The notes beneath the pieces are model-generated. The model worked only from the letters and a program-made list of their open reading frames with translations, ran no database searches and had not been told where the DNA came from. The position numbers and the translations under genes were made by a program. This document shows, piece after piece, positions 46,395 through 58,135 of a stretch of 58,168 nt of DNA. Each line of letters starts with the position of its first letter. The first letter of the stretch is position 1. Source of the DNA: Bacteroidales bacterium (lineage in GTDB: Bacteria; Bacteroidota; Bacteroidia; Bacteroidales; UBA7960); NCBI GenBank assembly GCA_007118495.1, contig SKRM01000014.1, positions 1 through 58,168 on the forward strand. The letters run 5' to 3'.

Positions 46395-47657
46395 TTATAG
46401 CATGTCAAGCCTTTTTGCATCAAGTTTCAGGAAAGTAAACAGCATGAGTGTCATCCCCCAAAGCGATGATCCGCCGTAACTTATCAATGGTAAAGGGATT
46501 CCGATAACGGGCACCAGTCCGATGGTCATCCCAATATTGATCAAAAAATGGAAGAAGATGATGGAGATTATACTATACCCGAACACCCTGCTGAATACCG
46601 ATTTTTGTCTTTCAGCCAAAAGCATTAACCTGAAAAGCAAAGCAAGAAAAAGTCCTATGGTGACAGTGGTTCCCACAAACCCCCACTCTTCTCCGATGGT
46701 GCAGAATATGAAATCGGTGGTTTGCTCCGGAACAAAATTGAATTTTGTTTGTGTGCCGTTCAGAAATCCCTTTCCCCATAACCCGCCTGAACCAATGGCA
46801 ATCTTTGACTGATTCAGATTATATCCTGCCCCCTGAAGATCAATTCCACCATGGATAAGCACCTCGATTCTGGCTTTGTGGTGGGGCTCAAACAGGTTCT
46901 CGTAAATATGGTCAACGGCGTATACATACAGAGATATAATGAGGAATAATCCAAATAGCTGAAGTACCGCCTGTACTTTTTTTCTGAGAATAAAGGCTAT
47001 GATCATGGTGAGCAGACCAAGGGCCCCTATAATGATGAACTCATTCAGCAAAAGTGTAAGGACGAATAATGTGATGGCCAGGGCGCCAAAAAACAACACC
47101 AGCCCGCCTATAACCCCTTCGCGATACAGAACCAGTATTAATGAACCAAATACCAGGGTGGTTCCCACATCTTTTTGCAAGAGCACCAGGGCTGCAGGCA
47201 AAGCGATAATGGCTATGGCCTTTATCCGGAACATCATGTCGGGGGTCTTGGTACGAATACTTGAAAACCAGGATGCCAGGGCCAGGGCCGTGGCATATTT
47301 GGCCACTTCTGAAGGCTGAAATGCAAATCCGCCTATCCTGAACCAGGCTTTGGTTGCATTGATCTCAACTCCAAAAAACAAAACCCCAACCAAGACTACC
47401 AGAAAAACCATATAAATTATCCAGGAAAAGCTGGTGAAAAATCTGACATCGAGCATTAAAACTGCCGCGCCCAGCAATAAGGCGGTGATAATCCACACCA
47501 TCTGTTTTCCATAACTAGTGCTGAGGTCAAAAATATGTTTGTGTGCTTCAGTGTATTCAACCGCAAAGATATTGAGCCAGCCAATGGAGATCATCAGCAG
47601 GTATAAAAAGATGACCGGCTTGTCAATATCTTTGAATATGTTAAACTGCGGTCTCAT
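46395..47657 (-). CDS. rodA: Rod shape-determining protein RodA (SEDS glycosyltransferase)
   Basis: This SEDS peptidoglycan polymerase works with PBP2 in cell elongation. The 420-aa protein has about ten helices, KAWFRIGGFAFQPSEVAKYA (the conserved loop), LLQKDVGTTLVFGSLILVL, and the catalytic-loop stretch NFVPEQTTDFIFCTIGEEWG, then LISYGGSSLWGMTLML. The ATG overlaps the last codons of mrdA (47654-47657, ATGA), so the partners are co-translated. Confidence 0.96.
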   Translation of the reverse strand: MRPQFNIFKDIDKPVIFLYLLMISIGWLNIFAVEYTEAHKHIFDLSTSYGKQMVWIITALLLGAAVLMLDVRFFTSFSWIIYMVFLVVLVGVLFFGVEINATKAWFRIGGFAFQPSEVAKYATALALASWFSSIRTKTPDMMFRIKAIAIIALPAALVLLQKDVGTTLVFGSLILVLYREGVIGGLVLFFGALAITLFVLTLLLNEFIIIGALGLLTMIIAFILRKKVQAVLQLFGLFLIISLYVYAVDHIYENLFEPHHKARIEVLIHGGIDLQGAGYNLNQSKIAIGSGGLWGKGFLNGTQTKFNFVPEQTTDFIFCTIGEEWGFVGTTVTIGLFLALLFRLMLLAERQKSVFSRVFGYSIISIIFFHFLINIGMTIGLVPVIGIPLPLISYGGSSLWGMTLMLFTFLKLDAKRLDML

Positions 47658-49489
47658 GGGTTTGGTGTTAAAAAGCTGGCCTCTAGCACTCTTTGTTCAA
47701 ACCAGCTACGTTTTACCTCACCGGTGAGGTATTTTTCTATCATCAGGCTGGCTATCGGAGCGGCCCAAACAGACCCGTATCCGGCATTCTCCACCACCAC
47801 CGATATGGCTATCTGAGGGTTGTCAACAGGGGCAAATGCCACAAAGACAGAATGGTTTTCACCATGTGGATTTTGAACGGTTCCTGTTTTCCCTCCCATG
47901 GCTATTCCGGGTATCCTCGAAAAGTTTCCTGTTCCCTCTTCAACAACCAGATGCATGGCCTTTACCATGGTTTCAAAATGTTCCTTGTCAATATCAATAT
48001 GGTTAAAGCCTTGCACATCGCTGTTTTGATTGTCGGGACTGCCAATGGCTCTGACAATATGGGGGGTGTGGTAATAACCCCGGTTCGCGATGGCGGCAGT
48101 CATATTCGCAAGCTGTAAAGGTGTTACCCCCAGCTCTCCCTGTCCGATTCCAAGTGAAAGGATGGTTTGTGACCTCCATCCCGACGGACCATATATCCTG
48201 TCATAATAATCTGAACTAACTACAAGTCCGCTTAGTTCATGAGACAAATCGCTTTCGAAGGGCCTCCCGATGCCAAAACTCATCACATGTCTTCTCCAGT
48301 GGGTAAAGGCCTCTTGTATGCTGTTGAAACCACTCTGGTTGATGGTGTTCTGAAATATGATGCTTGAATAGGTGTTGCAGCTGTATTGAATACCTGTTAT
48401 GGCATTGACAGGACTGGGATGGGAACGACATCTGATGCTGATACCCCTTGTGTGGTATATGCCGGAGCAACTGAATGAGGTGGAGGGTGTCACAATACCA
48501 TCCTGGAGAGCGATAAGGGTATTGACTATCTTGAAAACAGAACCAGGTGGATACTGGGCCTGAAGAGCTCTGTTGAAAAGCGGCTTAAGGGGGTCGTTTT
48601 GCAATGAGCGATAGTTTCTGGTTCTTTGTCTTCCGACCAAAAGCCCGGGATCAAATGATGGGGAAGATACCAGTGCAAGGATTTCACCGGTTGATGGTTC
48701 AATGGCCACAATACTGCCCCTTTTGTTCTTCATGAGTTGCTCACCGTAGGTCTGCAGTATGTGATCAAGTGTGGTATATAGATTCTGGCCTGCTATGGCA
48801 AGGGTGTCGTAACGCCCGTCCTGAAATGGCCCGATATCGCGGTTTAACACATCTACCATGCGTATCCGGATGCCCTTCTGGCCACGAAGAATTTCCTCAT
48901 AAGCACTTTCCAGCCCGCTGATCCCGATGAAGTCACCTGGCCTGTAGTAGGGATCGTTGCTGATGATATTCGGCCCGGCTTCACCCACATAACCAAAGGT
49001 GTGGGTAGCGATGGGGTAGCTGTATTTTCTGAGGGTTCTGGGCTGTACATAAAATCCCTGAAAACGGAAAAGTTTTTCTTGAAATGCAGCAAAGGTGGTT
49101 TTTGAAATTTGTCGCTCGAAAACTGAAGCCCTGAAACGGGAGTGGCGTCTGGCTTGCAACAGGCGGCTCTCAAATGTGTCAATATCTATACCAAGTAAAT
49201 TACAGAATTCAAGGGTGTCAATTTCCCATACCTGACCGGGGATGACCATCAGGTCGTAGTGGGCTTCATTGTATACCAGCAATTCACCATTGCGGTCGTA
49301 TATCAGTCCGCGGGTAGGATAGTCGGTAATGTGTCGCAGGTAATTGCTTTGTGCTGACATTTTGTATGAGGGATCAGCAATTTGCAGTATGAACAGCCTA
49401 CCCAACAGCAACAAAGCCGAAACCAGGATGATTCCTGCTATCACTTTTCTGCGGTTATCGAATTGGGTGGTTTTTACCTTAATGTGCAT
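47654..49489 (-). CDS. mrdA: Penicillin-binding protein 2 (transpeptidase)
   Basis: This enzyme cross-links peptidoglycan during elongation together with RodA. The 611-aa protein has an N-terminal membrane anchor (about 15-36), the pedestal domain beginning HITDYPTRGLIYDRNGELLVYNEAHYDL, and a transpeptidase domain with the SxxK serine in PPGSVFKIVNTL, SxN in YSCNTYSSI and KTG in GGKTGTVQNPHGEN. It is the first gene of the minus-strand envelope operon. mreBCD, usually nearby, is absent within the 196 bp before the divergent gene at 49686. Confidence 0.95.
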   Translation of the reverse strand: MHIKVKTTQFDNRRKVIAGIILVSALLLLGRLFILQIADPSYKMSAQSNYLRHITDYPTRGLIYDRNGELLVYNEAHYDLMVIPGQVWEIDTLEFCNLLGIDIDTFESRLLQARRHSRFRASVFERQISKTTFAAFQEKLFRFQGFYVQPRTLRKYSYPIATHTFGYVGEAGPNIISNDPYYRPGDFIGISGLESAYEEILRGQKGIRIRMVDVLNRDIGPFQDGRYDTLAIAGQNLYTTLDHILQTYGEQLMKNKRGSIVAIEPSTGEILALVSSPSFDPGLLVGRQRTRNYRSLQNDPLKPLFNRALQAQYPPGSVFKIVNTLIALQDGIVTPSTSFSCSGIYHTRGISIRCRSHPSPVNAITGIQYSCNTYSSIIFQNTINQSGFNSIQEAFTHWRRHVMSFGIGRPFESDLSHELSGLVVSSDYYDRIYGPSGWRSQTILSLGIGQGELGVTPLQLANMTAAIANRGYYHTPHIVRAIGSPDNQNSDVQGFNHIDIDKEHFETMVKAMHLVVEEGTGNFSRIPGIAMGGKTGTVQNPHGENHSVFVAFAPVDNPQIAISVVVENAGYGSVWAAPIASLMIEKYLTGEVKRSWFEQRVLEASFLTPNP

Positions 49490-49582
49490 ATGGCTTTTTG
49501 AAGCTTGGGTGCGGGGTGCTGTTTTCTTTTACAAAATTAACCATTCAACTGTTAATCAGTGATTATTTCTCCGCATTTTTTT

Positions 49583-49590
49583 TACCTTAG
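49583..49590 (+). promoter_or_regulatory. Possible -7 element TACCTTAG of the dehydrogenase/gatED unit
   Basis: It matches TAnnTTTG in all but one position and lies about 95 bp upstream of the start at 49686. No clear -33 element is visible, so this is tentative. Confidence 0.25.
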
Positions 49591-49685
49591 CCAGGCCTGG
49601 ACATTTGGCTCAGTGATGCTTTTCGCATGTCTGACCAATCGTCGTATTCAAAACAGATTCAAAAAGATTCAAAAAAGCAAACGGT

Positions 49686-50828
49686 ATGTCAAAAAAAAGA
49701 ATCATCGTACTAGGTGCCGGCATGGTAGGTAAGGCCATCGCCATTGATTTATCACGGTCGCATGATGTAACATCGGCAGATATTGACAAAGATTCACTTG
49801 AATATCTATCAGAAAATTATCCGGTTAAAACCATAGGTGTTAACCTCATGGAAGAAGACAAGATCACCAGGCTGGTATCAGGATATGATCTGGTTATCTC
49901 GGCAGTTCCTGGCTTTATGGGTTTTGATACCCTCAGGACAGTTATAGAGGCAGGAAAGAATATTGTGGATATATCATTTATGCCCGAAGACTTTATGGAA
50001 TTGAATGGATTGGCGGCAGAACGTGGCGTGACGGCCATAACTGATTGCGGGATTGCTCCCGGAATGCCCAATCTGATTGTTGGTTATCACAATGAATTTA
50101 TGGAGATAGAGCATTTTGAGTATACTGTTGGTGGCCTCCCCCGGATAAAGGTATACCCCTTTTATTATAAAGCACCTTTTTCGCCCATTGATGTAGTTGA
50201 AGAGTACACCCGTCCGGCCAGGTATGTTGAAAAGGGAAAAGCCATGGTTAAGCCTGCCATGAGTGAACCTGAACTGATGTTCTTTGATAGGGTTGGTACC
50301 CTGGAGGCTTTCTATACCGACGGGCTGAGGTCACTGTTGAAGAATATGGAACACATACCAAATATGAAAGAAAAAACATTGAGGTACCCCGGTCATATTC
50401 AGCTAATACAAGCATTGATGACCGCTGGCTTTTTTGATAAAGAACCACTGACGGTTAACAATACCCCCATCAGGCCTATTGACTTTACAAGCAAGGTCCT
50501 GATCCGTGACTGGAAGCTTGACCCTGATGAGCCCGAATTTACGGTTATGCGTATTGAGTTGACCGGACGTGAAGGTGGTGCAAAAAAGAAAGTTACCTAC
50601 GAGCTTTACGATGTGTATGATCAAAAAGAGAAGTTGTCATCTATGGCCCGGACTACCGGATTTACTGCCACAGCCAACGCTGAACTGATAATGGGTGGCC
50701 ATTTTACCGGCAAAGGAGTTTTTCCGCTCGAGCTGGTGGGCATGGATGAAGAGTGTTATGATTTTGTCATGAATTACCTGGCAGAGAGAAACGTTACATT
50801 TACAAAAACTTCAACCCAGGATGAATAA
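49686..50828 (+). CDS. Saccharopine/lysine 6-dehydrogenase-family protein
   Basis: The 380-aa product has the Rossmann opening IIVLGAGMVGKAIAIDLS, the saccharopine-dehydrogenase stretch ITDCGIAPGMPNLIVGY and a C-terminal half with VGGLPRIKVYPFYYKAPFSP and LRYPGHIQLIQALMTAGFFD. This layout fits saccharopine reductase-like and lysine 6-dehydrogenase proteins; the reaction is not decided. It overlaps gatE by 8 bp, so the three genes are one translational unit. Most Bacteroidota make lysine through DAP (lysA is in this window), so the enzyme is more likely degradative than biosynthetic; this is inferred. Confidence 0.85.
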   Translation: MSKKRIIVLGAGMVGKAIAIDLSRSHDVTSADIDKDSLEYLSENYPVKTIGVNLMEEDKITRLVSGYDLVISAVPGFMGFDTLRTVIEAGKNIVDISFMPEDFMELNGLAAERGVTAITDCGIAPGMPNLIVGYHNEFMEIEHFEYTVGGLPRIKVYPFYYKAPFSPIDVVEEYTRPARYVEKGKAMVKPAMSEPELMFFDRVGTLEAFYTDGLRSLLKNMEHIPNMKEKTLRYPGHIQLIQALMTAGFFDKEPLTVNNTPIRPIDFTSKVLIRDWKLDPDEPEFTVMRIELTGREGGAKKKVTYELYDVYDQKEKLSSMARTTGFTATANAELIMGGHFTGKGVFPLELVGMDEECYDFVMNYLAERNVTFTKTSTQDE

Positions 50829-52803
50829 ACCACTTTCACCGGCCCGGAACTATCGCCACACCATGCAAGAAATAGGCTATGTTCAGCGAAAGCAGGCCAC
50901 CCAGAACGACTACGACCGGATCGGATTCATGTCAGGACTTGAAGTCCACCAGCAATTAGATACACGGGAGAAATTATTTTGCCGGTGCCCGGCAGGAAAA
51001 TATGAACAGGATGATGTGTTCGATGCCGAGGTAATACGTCATATGCGCCCAACACTGAGTGAGCTGGGCGAATACGACGGAACTGCCCTTATGGAGTTTA
51101 AAACCAGAAAGAACATTGTTTACAGGATCAAAAATGAAACTACCTGTACCTATGAGGTGGATGACACCCCACCTTTTCCTGTCAACCGTGAGGCATTGGA
51201 TATAGCCATCAGGATATCCCTTCTGAAAAAACTAAATATTGTTGGAGAGGTTCACATTACCCGAAAACAATACCTTGATGGAAGCATCCCCACCGGTTTT
51301 CAACGAACAGCCATTATCGGGGTTGAGGGTGTCATTTCACTTCGAAACAAAACAGTCAGGCTTATCCAGTTGAGTCTTGAAGAGGATTCGTGCCGTGAAA
51401 TTTCAGATGTAGGCCATTGGCGCGTATATAAGACTGACCGGCTTGGCATGCCACTCATTGAAACGGTTACCTATCCGGATATGCTCAATCCTGACGAAGT
51501 GGCTGAGGCATGTCAGATAATACGCTTTTTAAACAGGAGTTCAGGCCAGGTGAGAACAGGCATAGGTGCAGCCAGACAAGATGTTAACGTGAGTTGCAGA
51601 GGTGGAACAAGGGTTGAAATCAAGGGTGTATCACGTATACGATGGATACCGGAGCTTACCCACAATGAAGCATTCAGGCAGTGGGCCCTGCTTCATATCC
51701 GTGATAAATTGCTGAAAAAGATAAAAACTCCAACCCATTGGGAAATGATTTCAATGGAGTCTGACCCATCTGCATTTGGATGCAGGTCAAGGGCATTAAA
51801 GGGGTTAAAAAATAATGGTTTGAAGCTTTATGCTGTTAAACTACCGGGGTTTAATGGGATTCTTTCACACTTTACCCAGCCGGGAAAAACCTTTGCCGAT
51901 GAGCTGAGTGACCGTCTGAAGGTAATTGCGTGCATTGAAAAACCCAATATGACCACCCATGATTGCCTGAAACCACTTGAGGGCGAAGAAGTATTCCAGA
52001 AAGTGAGAAAACATTTAGGTTGCCGGGCTGGAGATGCCGCATTGCTGATATGGGGCCCTTCTGATGATATACCTACGGCACTTGAAACTATTAATGAGCG
52101 CTGCAGGATGGCTTTTGAGGGTGTACCCAACGAGACCAGAAAGTCATTTGCCGACGGTACGACCATATTCGAAAGGGTCTTGCCTGGTGCTGACCGTATG
52201 TATCCTGATACAGATTCTGCCCCCATCCCATTGAAAGATGAGCACATAACAAAACTGGGAGAGGACCTCCCGTTGCTAACAATTGAGGCCTATCATGTGA
52301 TGAAGGGGTGGGGTGTGCCCGAAGATACCTATCATTATATTTTTAAAAACAACCTGTTTCCGCAGCTGAAACAAATGGTTGATGGGGGAGAGGACCCTGT
52401 TTTTGCAGGCACATTGCTTGGCCACAGTATGAAGTTTGTTGAAGGGCATTATGAGCGGGCGAGTGGTTTTCGGTACAGTCTCATTGGGGACATGCTCAAA
52501 GCCCTCAGAAACAGAAAGCTGAGAAGGGAGTTGATGACACTTATTCTGCCCGTGATTTATGTCCATCCGAAAATGGATCTTGATTCTGTACTGATAAGTA
52601 TTGGGTTTAAAAAAATGGATGCTGACCAGATACTCTCAAATACGGGTTTTTTAAGGGAAAAATTCAGAGCCATACGCCGCAAACCAGACCGGGAGGCAGA
52701 AGTGAACTGGTTAATGGGTCAGTTGCGTGAGCACGCCATAGGGAATATTGATCTGAGAGAGCTGAGAATGAGCCTGGAACAAATTATTGACCATAAAGAA
52801 TAA
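50821..52803 (+). CDS. gatE: Glu-tRNA(Gln) amidotransferase subunit GatE (archaeal type)
   Basis: In archaea GatE is the kinase/amidotransferase half of GatDE, which turns Glu-tRNA(Gln) into Gln-tRNA(Gln). The 660-aa product (archaeal members are near this length) has the cradle-domain opening GFMSGLEVHQQLDT, CRCPAGKYE, RKQYLDGSIPTGFQRTA, ETVTYPDMLNPDEVAE and VRTGIGAARQDVNVS. It also has an AspRS-like insertion (about 330-440), the hallmark PGADRMYPDTDSAPIPL and a YqeY-like helical tail (about 590-655). The insertion and tail order exclude plain bacterial GatB. It overlaps the dehydrogenase gene upstream by 8 bp and gatD follows after 3 bp. Confidence 0.92.
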   Translation: MNKPLSPARNYRHTMQEIGYVQRKQATQNDYDRIGFMSGLEVHQQLDTREKLFCRCPAGKYEQDDVFDAEVIRHMRPTLSELGEYDGTALMEFKTRKNIVYRIKNETTCTYEVDDTPPFPVNREALDIAIRISLLKKLNIVGEVHITRKQYLDGSIPTGFQRTAIIGVEGVISLRNKTVRLIQLSLEEDSCREISDVGHWRVYKTDRLGMPLIETVTYPDMLNPDEVAEACQIIRFLNRSSGQVRTGIGAARQDVNVSCRGGTRVEIKGVSRIRWIPELTHNEAFRQWALLHIRDKLLKKIKTPTHWEMISMESDPSAFGCRSRALKGLKNNGLKLYAVKLPGFNGILSHFTQPGKTFADELSDRLKVIACIEKPNMTTHDCLKPLEGEEVFQKVRKHLGCRAGDAALLIWGPSDDIPTALETINERCRMAFEGVPNETRKSFADGTTIFERVLPGADRMYPDTDSAPIPLKDEHITKLGEDLPLLTIEAYHVMKGWGVPEDTYHYIFKNNLFPQLKQMVDGGEDPVFAGTLLGHSMKFVEGHYERASGFRYSLIGDMLKALRNRKLRRELMTLILPVIYVHPKMDLDSVLISIGFKKMDADQILSNTGFLREKFRAIRRKPDREAEVNWLMGQLREHAIGNIDLRELRMSLEQIIDHKE

Positions 52804-52806
52804 TCC

Positions 52807-54192
52807 ATGACCGAAGATTTTTTTCAGGGATACAAAGGTGAGGCGCTTAAGACGCTAAAAAAGTATAATGTGAGGGTCTGGGGTCAGGCCAATGTTGAAA
52901 CTACCAGGGGAAACTTTATTGGAACCGTATTGCCCAGATCAGAAAATGACGACGACGGGCATATTGTACTTAAGATCCCTACGGGGTATAATGTGGGTGT
53001 TTCAGTTGCCAACATAACCTCTATGAAGGAAACCGGGTATAAAAAGGCCAATTACAAAATACCTGAGAAAGAATTTCCTTATACCAGCGGGTTGCCTGCT
53101 GTCAAGCTAATCGGTACTGGCGGCACCATCGCTTCAAGGCTGGATTACCGGACAGGCGCCGTGATTCCTGCCTTCTCACCTGGAGAGCTCTATGGGGCGG
53201 TGCCTGAACTGGCAGACATATGCAACCTGACCACCGAGAAAGTATTTGCGGTTTTCAGCGAGAATATGGGGCCTGAGCAATACAGGAAACTGGCGGTGGC
53301 CATCGGTAAGGAAATTGAAAACGGCATTGATGGTATTGTGATAGGTCATGGCACAGACACACTTCACCACACGGCAGCCGCGTTGACCTATATGGTGCAG
53401 GATCCACCGGTGCCCATCGTTCTGGTGGGCTCACAACGTTCTTCTGACCGGCCCTCATCAGATGCTGCCCTTAACCTGATGCATGCCTGCTATACAGCTG
53501 GCCATGGTGGCATTGCTGAGGTCATGGTGTGTATGTTTGGTCCCACCTCTGATGAGTACGCCTTGCTGCACAGGGGTACAAGGGTCAGGAAGATGCATTC
53601 CTCATACCGGAGTACTTTCAGAACCCTGGGGGATATCCCACTGGCCAAGGCCACCACAGAAGGTGTCATTCCCATCAAGCAGGATTTTAAGAGCCGGCGC
53701 AAGGACAGGAAAGTCACCATCTTGCCCTACTTTGAAGAAAAAGTCGCCATTATCTATTATTATCCGAATATGCAACCGGATATGGTGGATTCACTGATTG
53801 CCAATGGCTATAAAGGCATTATCATCGCAGGTACCGGTCTTGGACATGTGAACAAGCCTCTATACCCTGCCCTGGCGCGTGCCCAAAAGGCCGGGGTTGC
53901 CGTTTATATGACAGTACAAACCTTATGGGGCTACACCCAGATGTTTGTGTATGAGACTGGCCGGGAGATGATGGCCCTGGGGGTTGTTCCTGCTGAAAAC
54001 ATGCTGCCGGAGGTCGCTTATGTAAAACTTGGCTGGGCTCTGGGCCAGACCAGCGACCTGGACGAAGTCAAAAAGATCATGCTGACCCCCATGCATGATG
54101 ACATCACACCCAGAGAGCCTTACAATGGCTATTTGGTTTACCAGGGCGGACTGCCTGAGGTGGAGGAATTTATTAAACGATTCAGAAAATAA
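52807..54192 (+). CDS. gatD: Glu-tRNA(Gln) amidotransferase subunit GatD (archaeal type)
   Basis: GatD is the asparaginase-fold glutaminase of GatDE that releases ammonia for GatE. The 461-aa product starts with the GatD-specific beta domain (about 20-75: GTVLPRSENDDDGHIVLK, YNVGVSVANI), which ordinary asparaginases lack. The asparaginase active site follows: T107 in GTGGTIAS, T183-D184 in HGTDT and K262 in RVRKMHSS. It begins three bases after gatE. Sampled stretches are G+C-rich (34 of 60 bases at 53161-53220, 36 of 60 at 53401-53460), unlike much of the window. Confidence 0.93.
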   Translation: MTEDFFQGYKGEALKTLKKYNVRVWGQANVETTRGNFIGTVLPRSENDDDGHIVLKIPTGYNVGVSVANITSMKETGYKKANYKIPEKEFPYTSGLPAVKLIGTGGTIASRLDYRTGAVIPAFSPGELYGAVPELADICNLTTEKVFAVFSENMGPEQYRKLAVAIGKEIENGIDGIVIGHGTDTLHHTAAALTYMVQDPPVPIVLVGSQRSSDRPSSDAALNLMHACYTAGHGGIAEVMVCMFGPTSDEYALLHRGTRVRKMHSSYRSTFRTLGDIPLAKATTEGVIPIKQDFKSRRKDRKVTILPYFEEKVAIIYYYPNMQPDMVDSLIANGYKGIIIAGTGLGHVNKPLYPALARAQKAGVAVYMTVQTLWGYTQMFVYETGREMMALGVVPAENMLPEVAYVKLGWALGQTSDLDEVKKIMLTPMHDDITPREPYNGYLVYQGGLPEVEEFIKRFRK

Positions 54193-54260
54193 GAAGCTGG
54201 ATGTTAGATGTTTAATATATTTTCATCAGAAATTAGAAGCCAGTTACCAGCAATCATAAA

Positions 54261-54305
54261 TTCCAACCAAATGAATTTCAAACAAATGAGTTCCAAACAA
54301 CTAAT
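54261..54305 (+). repeat. Three 15-bp tandem repeats across the GH3 gene start
   Basis: Units TTCCAACCAAATGAA (54261-54275), TTTCAAACAAATGAG (54276-54290) and TTCCAAACAACTAAT (54291-54305) run in phase with the reading frame. The first two each contain an in-frame ATG (54271, 54286), so the gene has two equivalent candidate starts. Confidence 0.7.
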
Positions 54306-55416
54306 TGTGATCCTTGCGCCCCTGTTTTTGGTGCTGCTTTATGCTTGTTCATCTAATGATGATCCGAAACCGGATGACGATTCTCTGGAAAAGAAGATCG
54401 GCCAGATGCTGATTATTGGATTCCGCGGAATGGTTATTGATGAGCAAGACCAGATCTATGACGACATCGCCAGCGGTCGCGTTGGTGGCGTATTGCTGTA
54501 TGATCTCGATGTGGCCCTGGGGTTTACGCCCCGCAACATCGAGTCTCCGCAGCAGGTGATCAACCTCAACAACCAACTGGCCGGACTTGCAAAAGAGTAT
54601 CCCCTGCTGATCAGCATTGACCAGGAGGGTGGCCACGTAGCACGGCTTAAGGAGGCTTATGGCTTTCCGGCCACAGTATCGGCCGAGAGCCTCGGCACAA
54701 CGAACAACGACGAAACCACCCACTTTTACAGCCGGAGCATTGCACAAACGCTGTCCGGACACGGATTTAACGTGAACCTGGCACCTGTAGTGGATGTGAA
54801 CACCAATCCCGATAGTCCGGCCATTGGCGCCATCGAACGCAGCTTCTCCGACAACCCGGCCATCGTGACCCACCACGCCGGCATCTTCATTGATGAGCAT
54901 CATAATGAGAACGTGCTTACCACTTTGAAACATTTCCCCGGACACGGCAGTGCTGCAGATGACTCCCACTATGGTGTGACGGATGTGACAGACACCTGGG
55001 ACGAGATCGAACTCATTCCTTACCAAAACCTTATACAACAGGGCAAGGTCGATATAGTGATGACAGCACACATCTACAATGCCAACTGGGACGCTGATTA
55101 TCCGGCTACGATGTCGAAGAATGTGATCACAGGCATCTTACGCAACCAGCTGGGCTTTGACGGGGTAGTCATTTCAGACGACATGAACATGGGCGCCATC
55201 ACTGAATATTATGGCCTTGAAGAAGCCATTTTCCGCAGCCTGGATGCCGGCGTCGACATTCTGCTCTTTGCCAACAACATGGTGTATGATGAGCTCATCG
55301 CCATCAAAGTACGTGACATCATCCTTGATCTCATTAAAGATGGCACCATCACCGAGGCGCGCATACAGGAGTCTTACGACAGAATCATGGTTTTGAAAGG
55401 GAAATTGAGCAAGTAA
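54286..55416 (+). CDS. GH3-family beta-N-acetylhexosaminidase-like lipoprotein
   Basis: The 376-aa product (ATG at 54286; 54271 also possible) has a lipoprotein signal (LLYACSS) and a GH3 (beta/alpha)8 domain with SIDQEGGHVARL, FNVNLAPVVDVN, the His-Asp pair in KHFPGHGSAADDSHYG and the nucleophile Asp in VVISDDMNMGAI. KHFPGHG-x4-DSH is the NagZ signature, so it probably cleaves GlcNAc linkages in peptidoglycan or glycans, here at the envelope and not in the cytosol. G+C is high in places (35 of 60 at 54781-54840). It lies 93 bp after gatD; whether it belongs to that operon is unclear. Confidence 0.9.
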   Translation: MSSKQLIVILAPLFLVLLYACSSNDDPKPDDDSLEKKIGQMLIIGFRGMVIDEQDQIYDDIASGRVGGVLLYDLDVALGFTPRNIESPQQVINLNNQLAGLAKEYPLLISIDQEGGHVARLKEAYGFPATVSAESLGTTNNDETTHFYSRSIAQTLSGHGFNVNLAPVVDVNTNPDSPAIGAIERSFSDNPAIVTHHAGIFIDEHHNENVLTTLKHFPGHGSAADDSHYGVTDVTDTWDEIELIPYQNLIQQGKVDIVMTAHIYNANWDADYPATMSKNVITGILRNQLGFDGVVISDDMNMGAITEYYGLEEAIFRSLDAGVDILLFANNMVYDELIAIKVRDIILDLIKDGTITEARIQESYDRIMVLKGKLSK

Positions 55417-55585
55417 CTGGCAAAAAATTCTGTAAATAAGAAAGGCTTGGATACAGGATTACTCTGGTTTGCTGTACGTCTGTGAACATCCAATGTACAA
55501 TTATTAAACAAACATGTGTTTGGTTTAAGTATATTGATGAATTTAATGCATTGACCATTAATTAAGTACTTTCTGTGGCCTCGTT

Positions 55586-55605
55586 TTTGTATTGGCAAAT
55601 ACAAA
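55586..55605. promoter_or_regulatory. Perfect palindrome TTTGTATT-GGCA-AATACAAA
   Basis: Perfect 8-bp arms with a 4-bp spacer, ending nine bases before the permease start codon at 55615. Its ends (TTTGT...ACAAA, 20 bp in all) match the near-palindrome at 2001-2020 upstream of the first permease. As a hairpin it would cover the translation start region; as DNA it could bind a dimeric regulator. Confidence 0.5.
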
Positions 55606-55614
55606 TTTGCTACA

Positions 55615-57987
55615 ATGAATCTATTTTACACATTTAAGATTGGGCTGCGAAATTTTCTGCGCCACCGCTTCTATTCTTTTTTGAATATCCTGGGTTTTGC
55701 TTGCGGCATTACCGTTTTTGTATTTGTAAGCCTTTTTGTGGTTGATCAATACTTGGTTGATCGCACCCACAGTCACCGTGGGCAGATCTTCCGGCTTGAG
55801 GGTGAAATGGAACTTGGGAGCTGGGCTGTTACCGGCACATTGCACGGACCTTATTTACAGGAGAACTATCCTGAGGTAGAAAAAGTACTGCGGGTCAACA
55901 CTTATTTATTTAGTGCAGTAGACATCATTGTGGATGATGAGGCCTTTCATGTTCCGGATATTGTTTTGGCCGACACCACATTTTTTGATTTTTTCCCCTT
56001 TGAGTTTTTAGCAGGTAGCCGGGAGCACGCCCTGACAGACAAATACTCCATTGTGATTACCCGCAAACAGGCGGAGAATATTTTTGGGCACCTTGACGTA
56101 GTGGGCAAAACAATCAACATGATGGGGCGGTTGCCCTTGCAAATCACCGGTGTCATAGAGAATCCCACACATACCCACCTGCCGTTTGAGGGGATAACCC
56201 CCATGGTGTTGCTTGAGGATTTCCACAACAGACCCAATGTGTTGTATGAATATGACAGTTGGAATAATATCACATTTCTATGGCTCAGGAAAGGCACAAA
56301 TATTCAGGAGCTGGAAGTGAAGATCAATGACAGTTTCAGGCCCATGTTGGAGGAATTGGCGGGGCTAGTTGGGGTGGAGGAGCAAAAAGATTACTATCTG
56401 CGGCCCCTTCAGGATATTTATTTTGCAGAAGAGGTGGCGTTTGAACCATCCATCAGGAAAGGAGATCGAAGATCGGTCAATTCATTTGCGCTGATTGCCC
56501 TGTTTATTCTGGTCATAGCAGGGATCAACTTTATCAACCTTTCAACAGCCAGGGCTTTTGTCCGCTCAAAGGAAGTGGGGGTAAAGAAGCTGTTGGGCAG
56601 TACAAGGCAGCAGCTCATCCTCCAATTTCTGATGGAGGCAATCATGGTCACAGCTTTTGCGGTGTTACTTTCGACCCTGTTTATTGATTTACTCCATCCT
56701 TTTTTTTATGATCTCACCGACACCAATTTTCGGTTAAGTGATTTGCCGCTGACAATCAATGTACTGATCGTAATCGCTGCTGTTTTGCTGGTGGGTTTCT
56801 TGTCAGGAATTTATCCTTCTTTTTACCTGACCACCTTCCAGCCGGCTGCCGTATTGAAAGGACAAAAAATGCCCATGGCTGGTGGTGGCTCTTTTTTTAG
56901 AAAATCCCTGATCGTTTTCCAGTTTGCCATTTCCATTGCATTGATTTCAGCCACCATCATTGTATTTGATCAGATAGCGTATATGAAGAACCGGTCATTG
57001 GGCATGGAAATGGACAATGTGTTGTTTTTTGATTTTGATCCGGTTCATAGAAAAGGATCTTTTAAAAACCAGCTGCTTGAGCACCCTGACATTATAGCGG
57101 TAAGTTATGCAAATGCGCCTCCAGGTGCTATTCGCTCGCAGAATTCGGGTGAGGTGAATGGTGAGCGCAGACAATATATATACCTGGGCGGTCATGCTGG
57201 TCTACTCCCCCTATTGGGCGTTAATCTTGTTGTGGGTGACTATTTTAATCCTGAATTGCGATCTGACCTGGGCAAGGTAATTGTCCTCAATGAGCGCGCC
57301 GTCAGGGCATTTGGGTTTCAGGGGCCCTATCAGGAAGTTGTCGGCCAGGAAATCTTCGGCAAGCGGATTGTAGGCGTTGTGCCTGATTTCCACTTTAATT
57401 CTCCCCATGATGCGATGCTGCCATTGGTGATTGGTTGGGATGAGGATTATTCGTTCAAGGCCCTGGTAAAAACCAGTGGGGTGAACACACCTGAGGTGAT
57501 GGCGTATTTGCAATCGGTAAATCGGGAGTTCATGCCCCACAGAGCCTTCCGACCGCAATCCCTCGACGTTTTTTACAACCGGCATTATGCCTCTGAAGAA
57601 TTATTCGGAATCATTGTACTCACCTTTTCACTGTTTGCCATTCTCATTGCATGTCTCGGACTATTTGGACTGGCGTCCTATATGACAGGCCAGCGCACCA
57701 AAGAGGTGTCTGTCCGCAAGGTTTTGGGGGCCAGTGTTTCCGGTTTGTATGGGTTGCTTTTGAAGGATTTCCTGCTGCTCGTGGCGATTGGGTTCCTGAT
57801 AGCCTTACCGGTGGTTTGGTATCTGATGGGGCAATGGCTTGCTACCTTCCCCTATCAAACCAGCCTGACTGTCTGGCCTTTCATTGCCAGTGGATTTATT
57901 TCCGTTCTGCTGACAGTGCTTACCATTAGCTACCACGCTTACAAAATTTCGTTGGTTAATCCTGCCTGGGCATTGAAATATGAATAG
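55615..57987 (+). CDS. MacB/FtsX-type ABC transporter permease (second copy)
   Basis: The 790-aa protein has the same two-module layout as the one at 2261-4678: N-terminal helix (about 20-43), a periplasmic core, an FtsX block with FINLSTARAFVRSKEVGVKK (about 305-325), a second helix and core, and a C-terminal FtsX block containing TGQRTKEVSVRKVLGAS. The pair are paralogues with moderate similarity, shared motifs and different loops. No ATPase gene is adjacent. The upstream 20-bp palindrome and the downstream 18-bp hairpin mark it as a single transcription unit. Substrate unknown. Confidence 0.9.
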   Translation: MNLFYTFKIGLRNFLRHRFYSFLNILGFACGITVFVFVSLFVVDQYLVDRTHSHRGQIFRLEGEMELGSWAVTGTLHGPYLQENYPEVEKVLRVNTYLFSAVDIIVDDEAFHVPDIVLADTTFFDFFPFEFLAGSREHALTDKYSIVITRKQAENIFGHLDVVGKTINMMGRLPLQITGVIENPTHTHLPFEGITPMVLLEDFHNRPNVLYEYDSWNNITFLWLRKGTNIQELEVKINDSFRPMLEELAGLVGVEEQKDYYLRPLQDIYFAEEVAFEPSIRKGDRRSVNSFALIALFILVIAGINFINLSTARAFVRSKEVGVKKLLGSTRQQLILQFLMEAIMVTAFAVLLSTLFIDLLHPFFYDLTDTNFRLSDLPLTINVLIVIAAVLLVGFLSGIYPSFYLTTFQPAAVLKGQKMPMAGGGSFFRKSLIVFQFAISIALISATIIVFDQIAYMKNRSLGMEMDNVLFFDFDPVHRKGSFKNQLLEHPDIIAVSYANAPPGAIRSQNSGEVNGERRQYIYLGGHAGLLPLLGVNLVVGDYFNPELRSDLGKVIVLNERAVRAFGFQGPYQEVVGQEIFGKRIVGVVPDFHFNSPHDAMLPLVIGWDEDYSFKALVKTSGVNTPEVMAYLQSVNREFMPHRAFRPQSLDVFYNRHYASEELFGIIVLTFSLFAILIACLGLFGLASYMTGQRTKEVSVRKVLGASVSGLYGLLLKDFLLLVAIGFLIALPVVWYLMGQWLATFPYQTSLTVWPFIASGFISVLLTVLTISYHAYKISLVNPAWALKYE

Positions 57988-58042: not shown

Positions 58043-58050
58043 AATCGCAG

Positions 58051-58135
58051 TACCCGGAGCCGGGCTCGAACCGGCACGGCCGCAATGGCCACAGGATTTT
58101 AAGTCCTGGGTGTCTACCAATTCCACCATCCGGGC
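58051..58135 (-). tRNA. tRNA-Leu (anticodon UAA)
   Basis: The minus strand folds into a class II tRNA. The acceptor arm is GCCCGGA/TCCGGGT, the D arm includes GTGGAATTGGTAGACAC, the anticodon arm is CAGGA-CTTAAAA-TCCTG with anticodon TAA, a long variable arm (about 15 nt, TGGCC.../...GGCCG) follows, and the T arm is GCCGG-TTCGAGC-CCGGC. The discriminator base is A (58051), and CCA is not encoded. Confidence 0.93.

What the first reader, a model, noticed from the sequence alone, without database searches (positions are those of the whole stretch)
50821..54192. Archaeal-type GatD-GatE pair in a Bacteroidota operon
Both genes are complete and carry features that separate them from bacterial GatB and asparaginase: the GatD N-terminal beta domain plus the T107/T183-D184/K262 active site, and the GatE AspRS-like insertion, PGADRMYP signature and YqeY-like tail. 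GatDE is the glutamine-charging route of archaea; bacteria normally use GatCAB or GlnRS. Here it is translationally coupled to a lysine/saccharopine-dehydrogenase-like gene. Possibilities: a redundant Gln-tRNA route acquired from archaea, or a GatDE pair with a new substrate in amino-acid metabolism. The link between the three genes is not explained by known archaeal biology, so this is the best candidate for an undescribed system in the window.
Basis: partly seen in the sequence, partly recalled or inferred. Interest (0 to 1): 0.85.

Follow-up and report, generated by a model that had tools for sequence, protein, structure and literature searches.

The report
Second GatDE clade, accompanying glutaminyl-tRNA synthetase
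A two-protein enzyme that reviews call exclusively archaeal, used there to make glutamine-loaded tRNA, sits in this bacterium as part of a separate branch spread over many bacterial phyla, usually in cells that already own the enzyme it is thought to replace, so its real job is an open and testable question.

Summary
In detail: window 50821-54192 carries a complete, conserved gatE-gatD pair. The interpretation changes: it is neither a local archaeal import nor a three-gene amino-acid system. It belongs to a second GatDE clade, split from classical archaeal GatDE with FastTree support 100 in the GatE and GatD trees. The best 80 hits of one scan bear 17 phylum-level bacterial names, and the clade also occurs in 14 of 97 genomes of one archaeal phylum. 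Two 2022 reviews call GatDE exclusively archaeal. The pair does not replace GlnRS: the window genome has GlnRS, no GatB and a discriminating-type GluRS, and 43 of 50 genomes with this clade have GlnRS. In the archaeal phylum GlnRS (reviewed as absent from archaea) occurs in 21 of 97 genomes and tracks this clade (10 of 14 carriers, 3 of 71 with classical GatE only). Inside the window's own order there is no such association. Rare neighbours are GlnRS, glutamine synthetase and tRNA-Gln; the dehydrogenase link is confined to one family. Most likely it is a Glu-tRNA(Gln) amidotransferase that repairs or backs up charging beside GlnRS (0.5); a different substrate is the main rival (0.25). Substrate and physiology are inferred, not shown.

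The parts
49686..50828 (+). Saccharopine-dehydrogenase-superfamily gene (380 aa), overlaps gatE by 8 nt; family-level neighbour, probably not part of the GatDE system
   Evidence: Pfam Sacchrp_dh_C and Sacchrp_dh_NADP; best PDB 3abi, 212 bits; linked only in the window's family
50821..52803 (+). gatE, clade-2 GatE, 660 aa
50893..51720 (+). GatE catalytic part, aa 25-300 (boundary set by me), with conserved E41, H43, E187, E188 and DGSIPTGFQRT
   Evidence: 131 of 274 columns at 90% or more in the bacterial rows; 53 of them with the same residue at 90% or more in classical archaeal rows
51721..52095 (+). GatE region aligned to the insertion of archaeal GatE, aa 301-425 (boundary set by me)
   Evidence: alignment only
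52183..52206 (+). PGADRMYP signature of GatE (aa 455-462)
52546..52803 (+). C-terminal tail of GatE (aa 576-660), the tRNA-elbow-binding part in archaeal GatE (PMC4810234)
   Evidence: at least 60 residues in 101 of 101 clade-2 GatE rows; helical in the model
52807..54192 (+). gatD, clade-2 GatD, 461 aa, 3 nt behind gatE
52894..53016 (+). GatD_N beta domain (aa 30-70)
   Evidence: Pfam PF18195, 40.4 bits against 25.7
53125..53592 (+). Stretch holding the amidase active-site residues T107, T183, D184, K262 of GatD
   Evidence: identical in 131 of 131 aligned GatD; invariant

Best explanation
The window's gatED encodes a member of a second GatDE clade that works beside GlnRS. GatD releases ammonia from glutamine or asparagine; GatE, holding tRNA with its insertion and tail, phosphorylates the side-chain carboxylate of glutamate on tRNA-Gln and amidates it, so that any Glu-tRNA(Gln) made by error or under low glutamine becomes Gln-tRNA(Gln). 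GlnRS stays the main charging enzyme; GatDE is a repair or backup enzyme, and in the few genomes without GlnRS it may carry the route alone. Shown: complete coupled genes, catalytic residues, purifying selection in relatives, the two-clade tree, coexistence with GlnRS, and some glutamine-related neighbours. Inferred: the substrate, the amide donor, the repair role (chemistry as known for archaeal GatDE).
For: All four GatD amidase residues are kept in 131 of 131 rows, the GatE catalytic core is strongly conserved, and the tRNA-binding tail is kept in 101 of 101 rows (rows were preselected at 560 aa or more, but of 142 clade-2 GatE ORFs only 4 are shorter and all 4 are cut by a contig end), which a tRNA-free substrate would not require. 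GlnRS coexists: own genome; 43 of 50 clade-2 genomes of many phyla, Bacteroidota and one archaeon included; 26 of 29 GatD carriers against 79 of 266 non-carriers in other classes of the window's phylum (GlnRS counted at E below 1e-90); in the archaeal phylum 10 of 14 clade-2 carriers against 3 of 71 with classical GatE only. Three archaea (G536, G560, G569) hold both GatE kinds, so the kinds are not simply interchangeable. Neighbours: GlnRS directly beside gatED in G084 and G111; glutamine-synthetase-family genes beside it in L179, L184, G536 and G557; tRNA-Gln within 150 nt in archaea G620 and G557. In the order GluRS has the discriminating-type Arg in 21 of 21 GatE+ genomes, so bulk Glu-tRNA(Gln) is not expected and repair fits better than a main route.
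Against: No biochemistry. Within the window's own order GatE and GlnRS are not associated (37 of 46 against 40 of 52), because GlnRS is nearly universal there. The associations are not corrected for phylogeny and are clustered by family; nearly all genomes are MAGs. Carriers without GlnRS over the cut-off: G384, G411, G348 (of 29 in other classes); G504 and G539 (no GatB either), G492, G520, G534 (with GatB), G514 (GlnRS fragment), G533 (no class-I Glx match at all) of the 50; G595, G616, G612, G624 of the 14 archaeal ones; 9 of 46 in the order. The neighbour links are few, most loci have none. Both tRNA-Gln of the window genome have U1-A72, not the A1-U72 that archaeal GatDE reads (PMC9499178, passage). 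Just over half of the order sample (52 of 98) lacks GatE over the cut-off, so the role is dispensable. Clade-specific changes lie beside invariant catalytic motifs, which could mean another substrate.
Confidence: 0.5

Rival explanations
1. Clade-2 GatDE has a changed substrate: another aminoacyl-tRNA, or a glutamate-like carboxylate without tRNA, in glutamine or nitrogen metabolism.
For: 18 sites are fixed differently in bacterial clade-2 and in classical archaeal GatE (85% and 80% thresholds), several beside the invariant catalytic motifs (T88, Y111, D115, T116, Y151, I156, P157, C191); at 14 of 18 the archaeal clade-2 rows share the bacterial residue. GluRS is discriminating-type in the 21 GatE+ genomes tested, so the classical substrate should be scarce. 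Glutamine-synthetase-family neighbours.
Against: The tRNA-binding tail is kept; glnS and tRNA-Gln occur as neighbours; four archaeal carriers show neither GlnRS nor a classical GatE (G612 also has an unclassified 112-residue fragment).
Confidence: 0.25
2. It is the ordinary two-step route: GluRS charges tRNA-Gln with glutamate in vivo and GatDE completes it; GlnRS is the spare.
For: Catalytic and tRNA-binding parts are intact; two carriers, G504 and G539, show neither GlnRS nor GatB.
Against: GluRS with the discriminating-type Arg in 21 of 21 GatE+ genomes, the same as in 19 of 19 readable GatE- genomes; GlnRS is under the cut-off in only 9 of 46 GatE+ genomes of the order sample, 7 of them under 90% complete. 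The Arg alone is not proof (PMC3927822 reports no effect of changing it in H. pylori).
Confidence: 0.13
3. A three-gene system with the dehydrogenase in lysine or other amino-acid metabolism.
For: 8-nt overlap with gatE in the window and adjacency in most fetched loci of the window's family; the dehydrogenase too is under purifying selection (dN/dS 0.033-0.082).
Against: The ortholog was not found next to gatED outside that family; the L177 case is a distant homologue.
Confidence: 0.05
4. A recently transferred, nearly neutral passenger, or contamination of MAGs.
For: Patchy presence inside genera and families; nearly all sources are MAGs.
Against: dN/dS 0.011-0.089 in near pairs; present in a named strain, Clostridium tagluense A121, and on a 5.16 Mb archaeal contig.
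Confidence: 0.03

Closest known systems
Archaeal GatDE (Glu-tRNA(Gln) amidotransferase; PDB 2d6f, 1zq1)
   Same: Gene content, domain order, GatD active site, GatE catalytic motifs, predicted fold (Foldseek E 3.6e-37 to 2d6f chain D)
   Different: Separate clade (FastTree support 100 in both trees); 18 clade-specific GatE sites; found mainly in bacteria and mostly beside GlnRS; gatE before gatD on one strand in 127 of 146 loci, median gap 1 nt
Bacterial GatCAB
   Same: GatB and GatE share the catalytic domain (PF02934)
   Different: GatD is an asparaginase-type amidase, not GatA; no GatB in the window genome; a strong GatB match in 15 of 50 clade-2 genomes
GatCAB beside GlnRS and AsnRS (Bdellovibrio, Deinococcus, Thermus; PMC4206432, start of the abstract seen in a listing, one passage)
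   Same: An amidotransferase kept beside the direct charging enzymes
   Different: There the accepted use is tRNA-dependent asparagine synthesis by GatCAB (recalled); here the pair is GatDE and the neighbours concern glutamine
Type I asparaginase
   Same: GatD amidase fold (TIGR00519 372.5 bits against 260.5)
   Different: GatD_N domain, GatD equivalog over its cut-off, coupled to gatE

Membership tests
GatDE amidotransferase | GatD over its curated cut-off, with N-terminal domain and T/T-D/K active site | tested here: met
GatDE amidotransferase | GatE over its curated cut-off, with GatB/GatE catalytic domain | tested here: met
   (TIGR00134 well over; NF003107 456.1 against 456, only just)
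GatDE amidotransferase | GatE insertion and tRNA-binding tail | tested here: met
   by alignment and length; no separate Pfam hit
GatDE amidotransferase | Amidation of Glu-tRNA(Gln) | not testable with these tools
   needs an assay
Classical archaeal GatDE clade | Falls among classical archaeal GatE and GatD | tested here: not met
   other side of a branch with FastTree support 100
Indirect glutamine route (ND-GluRS plus amidotransferase, no GlnRS) | Absence of GlnRS | tested here: not met
   GlnRS 774.8 bits in the own genome
Indirect glutamine route (ND-GluRS plus amidotransferase, no GlnRS) | Non-discriminating GluRS | tested here: inconclusive
   Arg at the T. thermophilus 358 position and GlnRS without gatCAB point to discriminating; one residue is not proof (PMC3927822)
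Indirect glutamine route (ND-GluRS plus amidotransferase, no GlnRS) | A1-U72 tRNA-Gln as read by archaeal GatDE | tested here: not met
   U1-A72 in both tRNA-Gln found; 30 of the 36 tRNA matches were fetched as loci
GatCAB | GatB in the genome | tested here: not met
   single PF02934 match, the gatE

The most novel reading that the evidence does not exclude
Clade-2 GatDE is the second half of an unrecognised translation-fidelity module, GlnRS plus a dedicated Glu-tRNA(Gln) repair amidotransferase, that has moved between bacteria and archaea and let some Thermoplasmata-type archaea adopt GlnRS, with tRNA-Gln genes altered at the discriminator base beside glnS.
Probability: 0.3. Interest if true: 0.88.

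Novelty: new variant of a known kind. Interest (0 to 1): 0.74.

Why it matters
GatDE is cited as an archaeal signature protein and GlnRS as absent from all archaea (PMC8762117, PMC9499178; passages read). Both statements are contradicted by the genomes searched here, with the caution that most are MAGs. If the pair repairs tRNA-Gln charging beside GlnRS, many bacteria have an undescribed quality-control step; if it has a new substrate, a conserved enzyme family is misnamed in databases. Clostridium tagluense A121, a named strain, makes it testable.

Tried and rejected
A general dehydrogenase-GatDE system was rejected: family-level only. A non-discriminating GluRS in GatE+ genomes was looked for and not found (21 GatE+ with one of them, G092, a partial GatE under the cut-off, and 20 GatE- of which one gene was cut). 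A second, archaeal-like tRNA-Gln in the window genome was looked for in 30 of 36 tRNA matches and not found. A sigma-70 promoter and terminator scan of 49400-55700 was near the shuffled expectation (16 against 11.6 and 5 against 6.5). tblastn of GatE against plasmids showed no clade-2 relative in the 30 of 37 rows listed, only GatB-like hits under 32% identity and one haloarchaeal GatE at 37.5%. ABC-ATPase and aminotransferase neighbours (clusters) were judged unspecific. A tRNA-like hit before gatE in L309 was dropped as doubtful by eye. L177's dehydrogenase was first noted as a second case and then dropped on its score. The GatE model is weak in the catalytic loops and was used only for the fold match.

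A preliminary Fisher test used 10 of 12 against 3 of 73 archaeal genomes; after more sequences were classified it was replaced by 10 of 14 against 3 of 71 (p 8e-8, not corrected for kinship). Ten of the 71 (G598, G583, G573, G593, G589, G626, G564, G614, G632, G597) were counted as classical by TIGR00134 score or by a split match like that of classified ones, not by their own sequence. G620 is placed in clade 2 only narrowly by HMM (501 against 438 bits). The Poisson estimate (152 loci, a few from one genome reached twice) assumes 3,000 genes per genome and was made after seeing the cases, so it is indicative only. Rows left out before counts: GatE under 560 aa, L173 and L317 in the conservation table; GatD under 380 aa, second fetches, and two thirds of the Bacteroidota loci below L132.

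Literature: ten searches, of which one search listed 10 of 27 papers and concerned GluRS. No title, abstract start or passage that I saw in them describes GatDE in bacteria or GlnRS in archaea. Passages were read in PMC7373986, PMC8007984, PMC8762117, PMC9499178, PMC13047044, PMC4206432, PMC4810234, PMC3927822 and PMC3532385; no paper was read whole. The library lacks most subscription papers, and Sheppard and Soll 2008 is not held, so prior description elsewhere is possible.

Full report
1. The genes. gatE (50821-52803) and gatD (52807-54192) are complete and follow each other with 3 nt between them. Curated models identify both, and the closest solved structures are the archaeal GatDE complexes 2d6f and 1zq1. 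The GatE model matches the same structures (Foldseek E 3.6e-37 to 2d6f chain D, 33% identity, TM-score 0.57 by query length; mean pLDDT 80.8 but low in the catalytic loops). GatD keeps its four catalytic residues in 131 of 131 aligned rows; the GatE tail is kept in 101 of 101 clade-2 rows. Those rows were preselected for length, but of 142 clade-2 GatE ORFs only 4 are shorter than 560 aa and all 4 are cut by a contig end. dN/dS in near pairs of relatives is 0.011-0.030 (gatD) and 0.040-0.089 (gatE); against the window itself dS is saturated in 11 of 12 comparisons.

2. The own genome. It has one GatB/GatE-type match, this gatE; a GlnRS of 564 aa with a tRNA-Gln(CUG) beside it; and one bacterial GluRS whose residue at the T. 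thermophilus Arg358 position is Arg. PMC3927822 (passages read) tabulates 12 of 14 Bacteroidetes with one GluRS, GlnRS and no gatCAB, and calls the prediction of a discriminating GluRS from that combination robust; it also says that changing the Arg had no effect in H. pylori. Both tRNA-Gln found have U1-A72 (30 of 36 tRNA matches fetched). So glutamine charging should not need GatDE here.

3. Spread. 46 of 98 genomes of the genus, family and order sample (own included) have GatE over the cut-off, and 30 of 394 genomes of the phylum sample have GatD over it: the own genome and 29 in other classes, none of 93 in the same class outside the order and none of 5 others of the order in that sample. 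These carry 17 phylum-level bacterial names (Bacteroidota included), one archaeal name (L198) and one named strain, Clostridium tagluense A121. Names are those of the record titles, mostly MAGs. In the loci counted gatE precedes gatD on the same strand in 127 of 146, with a median gap of 1 nt (a few genomes were reached twice).

4. Tree. In FastTree analyses of 131 GatE and 131 GatD, all classical archaeal rows (28 and 29) lie on one side of a branch with local support 100, and the bacterial rows with the archaeal clade-2 rows on the other. The GatE tree places archaeal clade-2 sequences near the base, and G620 as a long branch there; this suggests, but does not prove, an archaeal origin, and the root is imposed. 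The GatD tree warns of long branches that meet. Eighteen GatE sites separate the bacterial rows from classical archaeal ones, several next to invariant catalytic motifs; 14 of the 18 are shared by the archaeal clade-2 rows.

5. GlnRS. Of 50 clade-2 genomes (50 of the 80 loci, Bacteroidota and one archaeon included, two of them also among the relatives), 43 have GlnRS over the cut-off and 15 have a strong GatB match. In the other classes of the phylum GlnRS occurs in 26 of 29 GatD carriers and 79 of 266 non-carriers (E below 1e-90; not corrected for kinship, and strongly clustered by family). Inside the window's own order there is no association (37 of 46 against 40 of 52).

6. An archaeal phylum. 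L198 is titled Thermoplasmata archaeon. In 97 genomes of its phylum GlnRS is over the cut-off in 21, although reviews say that all known archaea lack it (PMC9499178, PMC8762117; passages read). In G536 the GlnRS lies on a 5.16 Mb contig beside an archaeal LysRS (TIGR00467 552 bits against 147.55). Clade-2 GatE occurs in 14 genomes, 10 with GlnRS; among 71 with classical GatE only (61 classified by their own sequence, 10 by score or pattern), 3 have GlnRS; among 12 without GatE over the cut-off, 8 have it. G536, G560 and G569 have both GatE kinds. Four carriers (G595, G616, G612, G624) show neither GlnRS nor a classical GatE; incomplete MAGs may explain some, or clade-2 GatDE may make Gln-tRNA alone there.

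7. Neighbours. GlnRS is directly beside gatED in G084 (glnS-gatE-gatD) and G111 (convergent), 2 of 152 clade-2 loci; glutamine-synthetase-family genes flank it in 4 (L179, L184, G536, G557), of which L179 and L286 (G557) pass the GlnA cut-off, L184 is partial and G536 is a divergent member below it; in G084 a divergent member lies about 4.5 kb before glnS. tRNA-Gln lies within 150 nt of the gat genes in archaea G620 and G557. Most loci have no such neighbour. The dehydrogenase next to the window's gatE recurs as an ortholog only in its family.

8. Reading. The kept tRNA-binding parts, the amidase, GlnRS coexistence and the glutamine-type neighbours favour a Glu-tRNA(Gln) amidotransferase; the discriminating-type GluRS and the presence of GlnRS argue that it repairs or backs up rather than carries charging. 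A changed substrate is the chief rival, because the clade-defining changes sit by the catalytic motifs. No result here measures activity.

Noticed in passing
L272-L277, L280 (archaeal phylum of G536): GlnRS genes in archaea (21 of 97 genomes over the cut-off); tRNA-Gln genes lie near GlnRS in 5 of the 6 loci kept. By eye from the ARAGORN output most of these tRNA-Gln have G73 rather than the archaeal A73, while one of three in G536 and the one in L275 keep A73.
   Followed up: partly
L198 4347-5873, L130 84-1589: A divergent glutamine-synthetase-family protein (both GS domains, about 222-226 bits to GlnA, below the 429 cut-off) shared by an archaeon and a genome of the window's order near gatDE (phmmer 528 bits between them).
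   Followed up: partly
window 46395-49489: Penicillin-binding protein 2 and RodA/FtsW-type genes, divergent from the dehydrogenase-gatE-gatD genes; the same arrangement in most fetched loci of the window's family.
   Followed up: no
window 54208-55416: Glycoside hydrolase family 3 gene 15 nt after gatD; its cluster was found in no other of the 60 loci compared.
   Followed up: no
window 58050-58135: tRNA-Leu(UAA) at the window end; in 7 same-genus loci tRNA-Leu(UAA) and tRNA-Gly(GCC) lie 3-536 nt from gatD.
   Followed up: no
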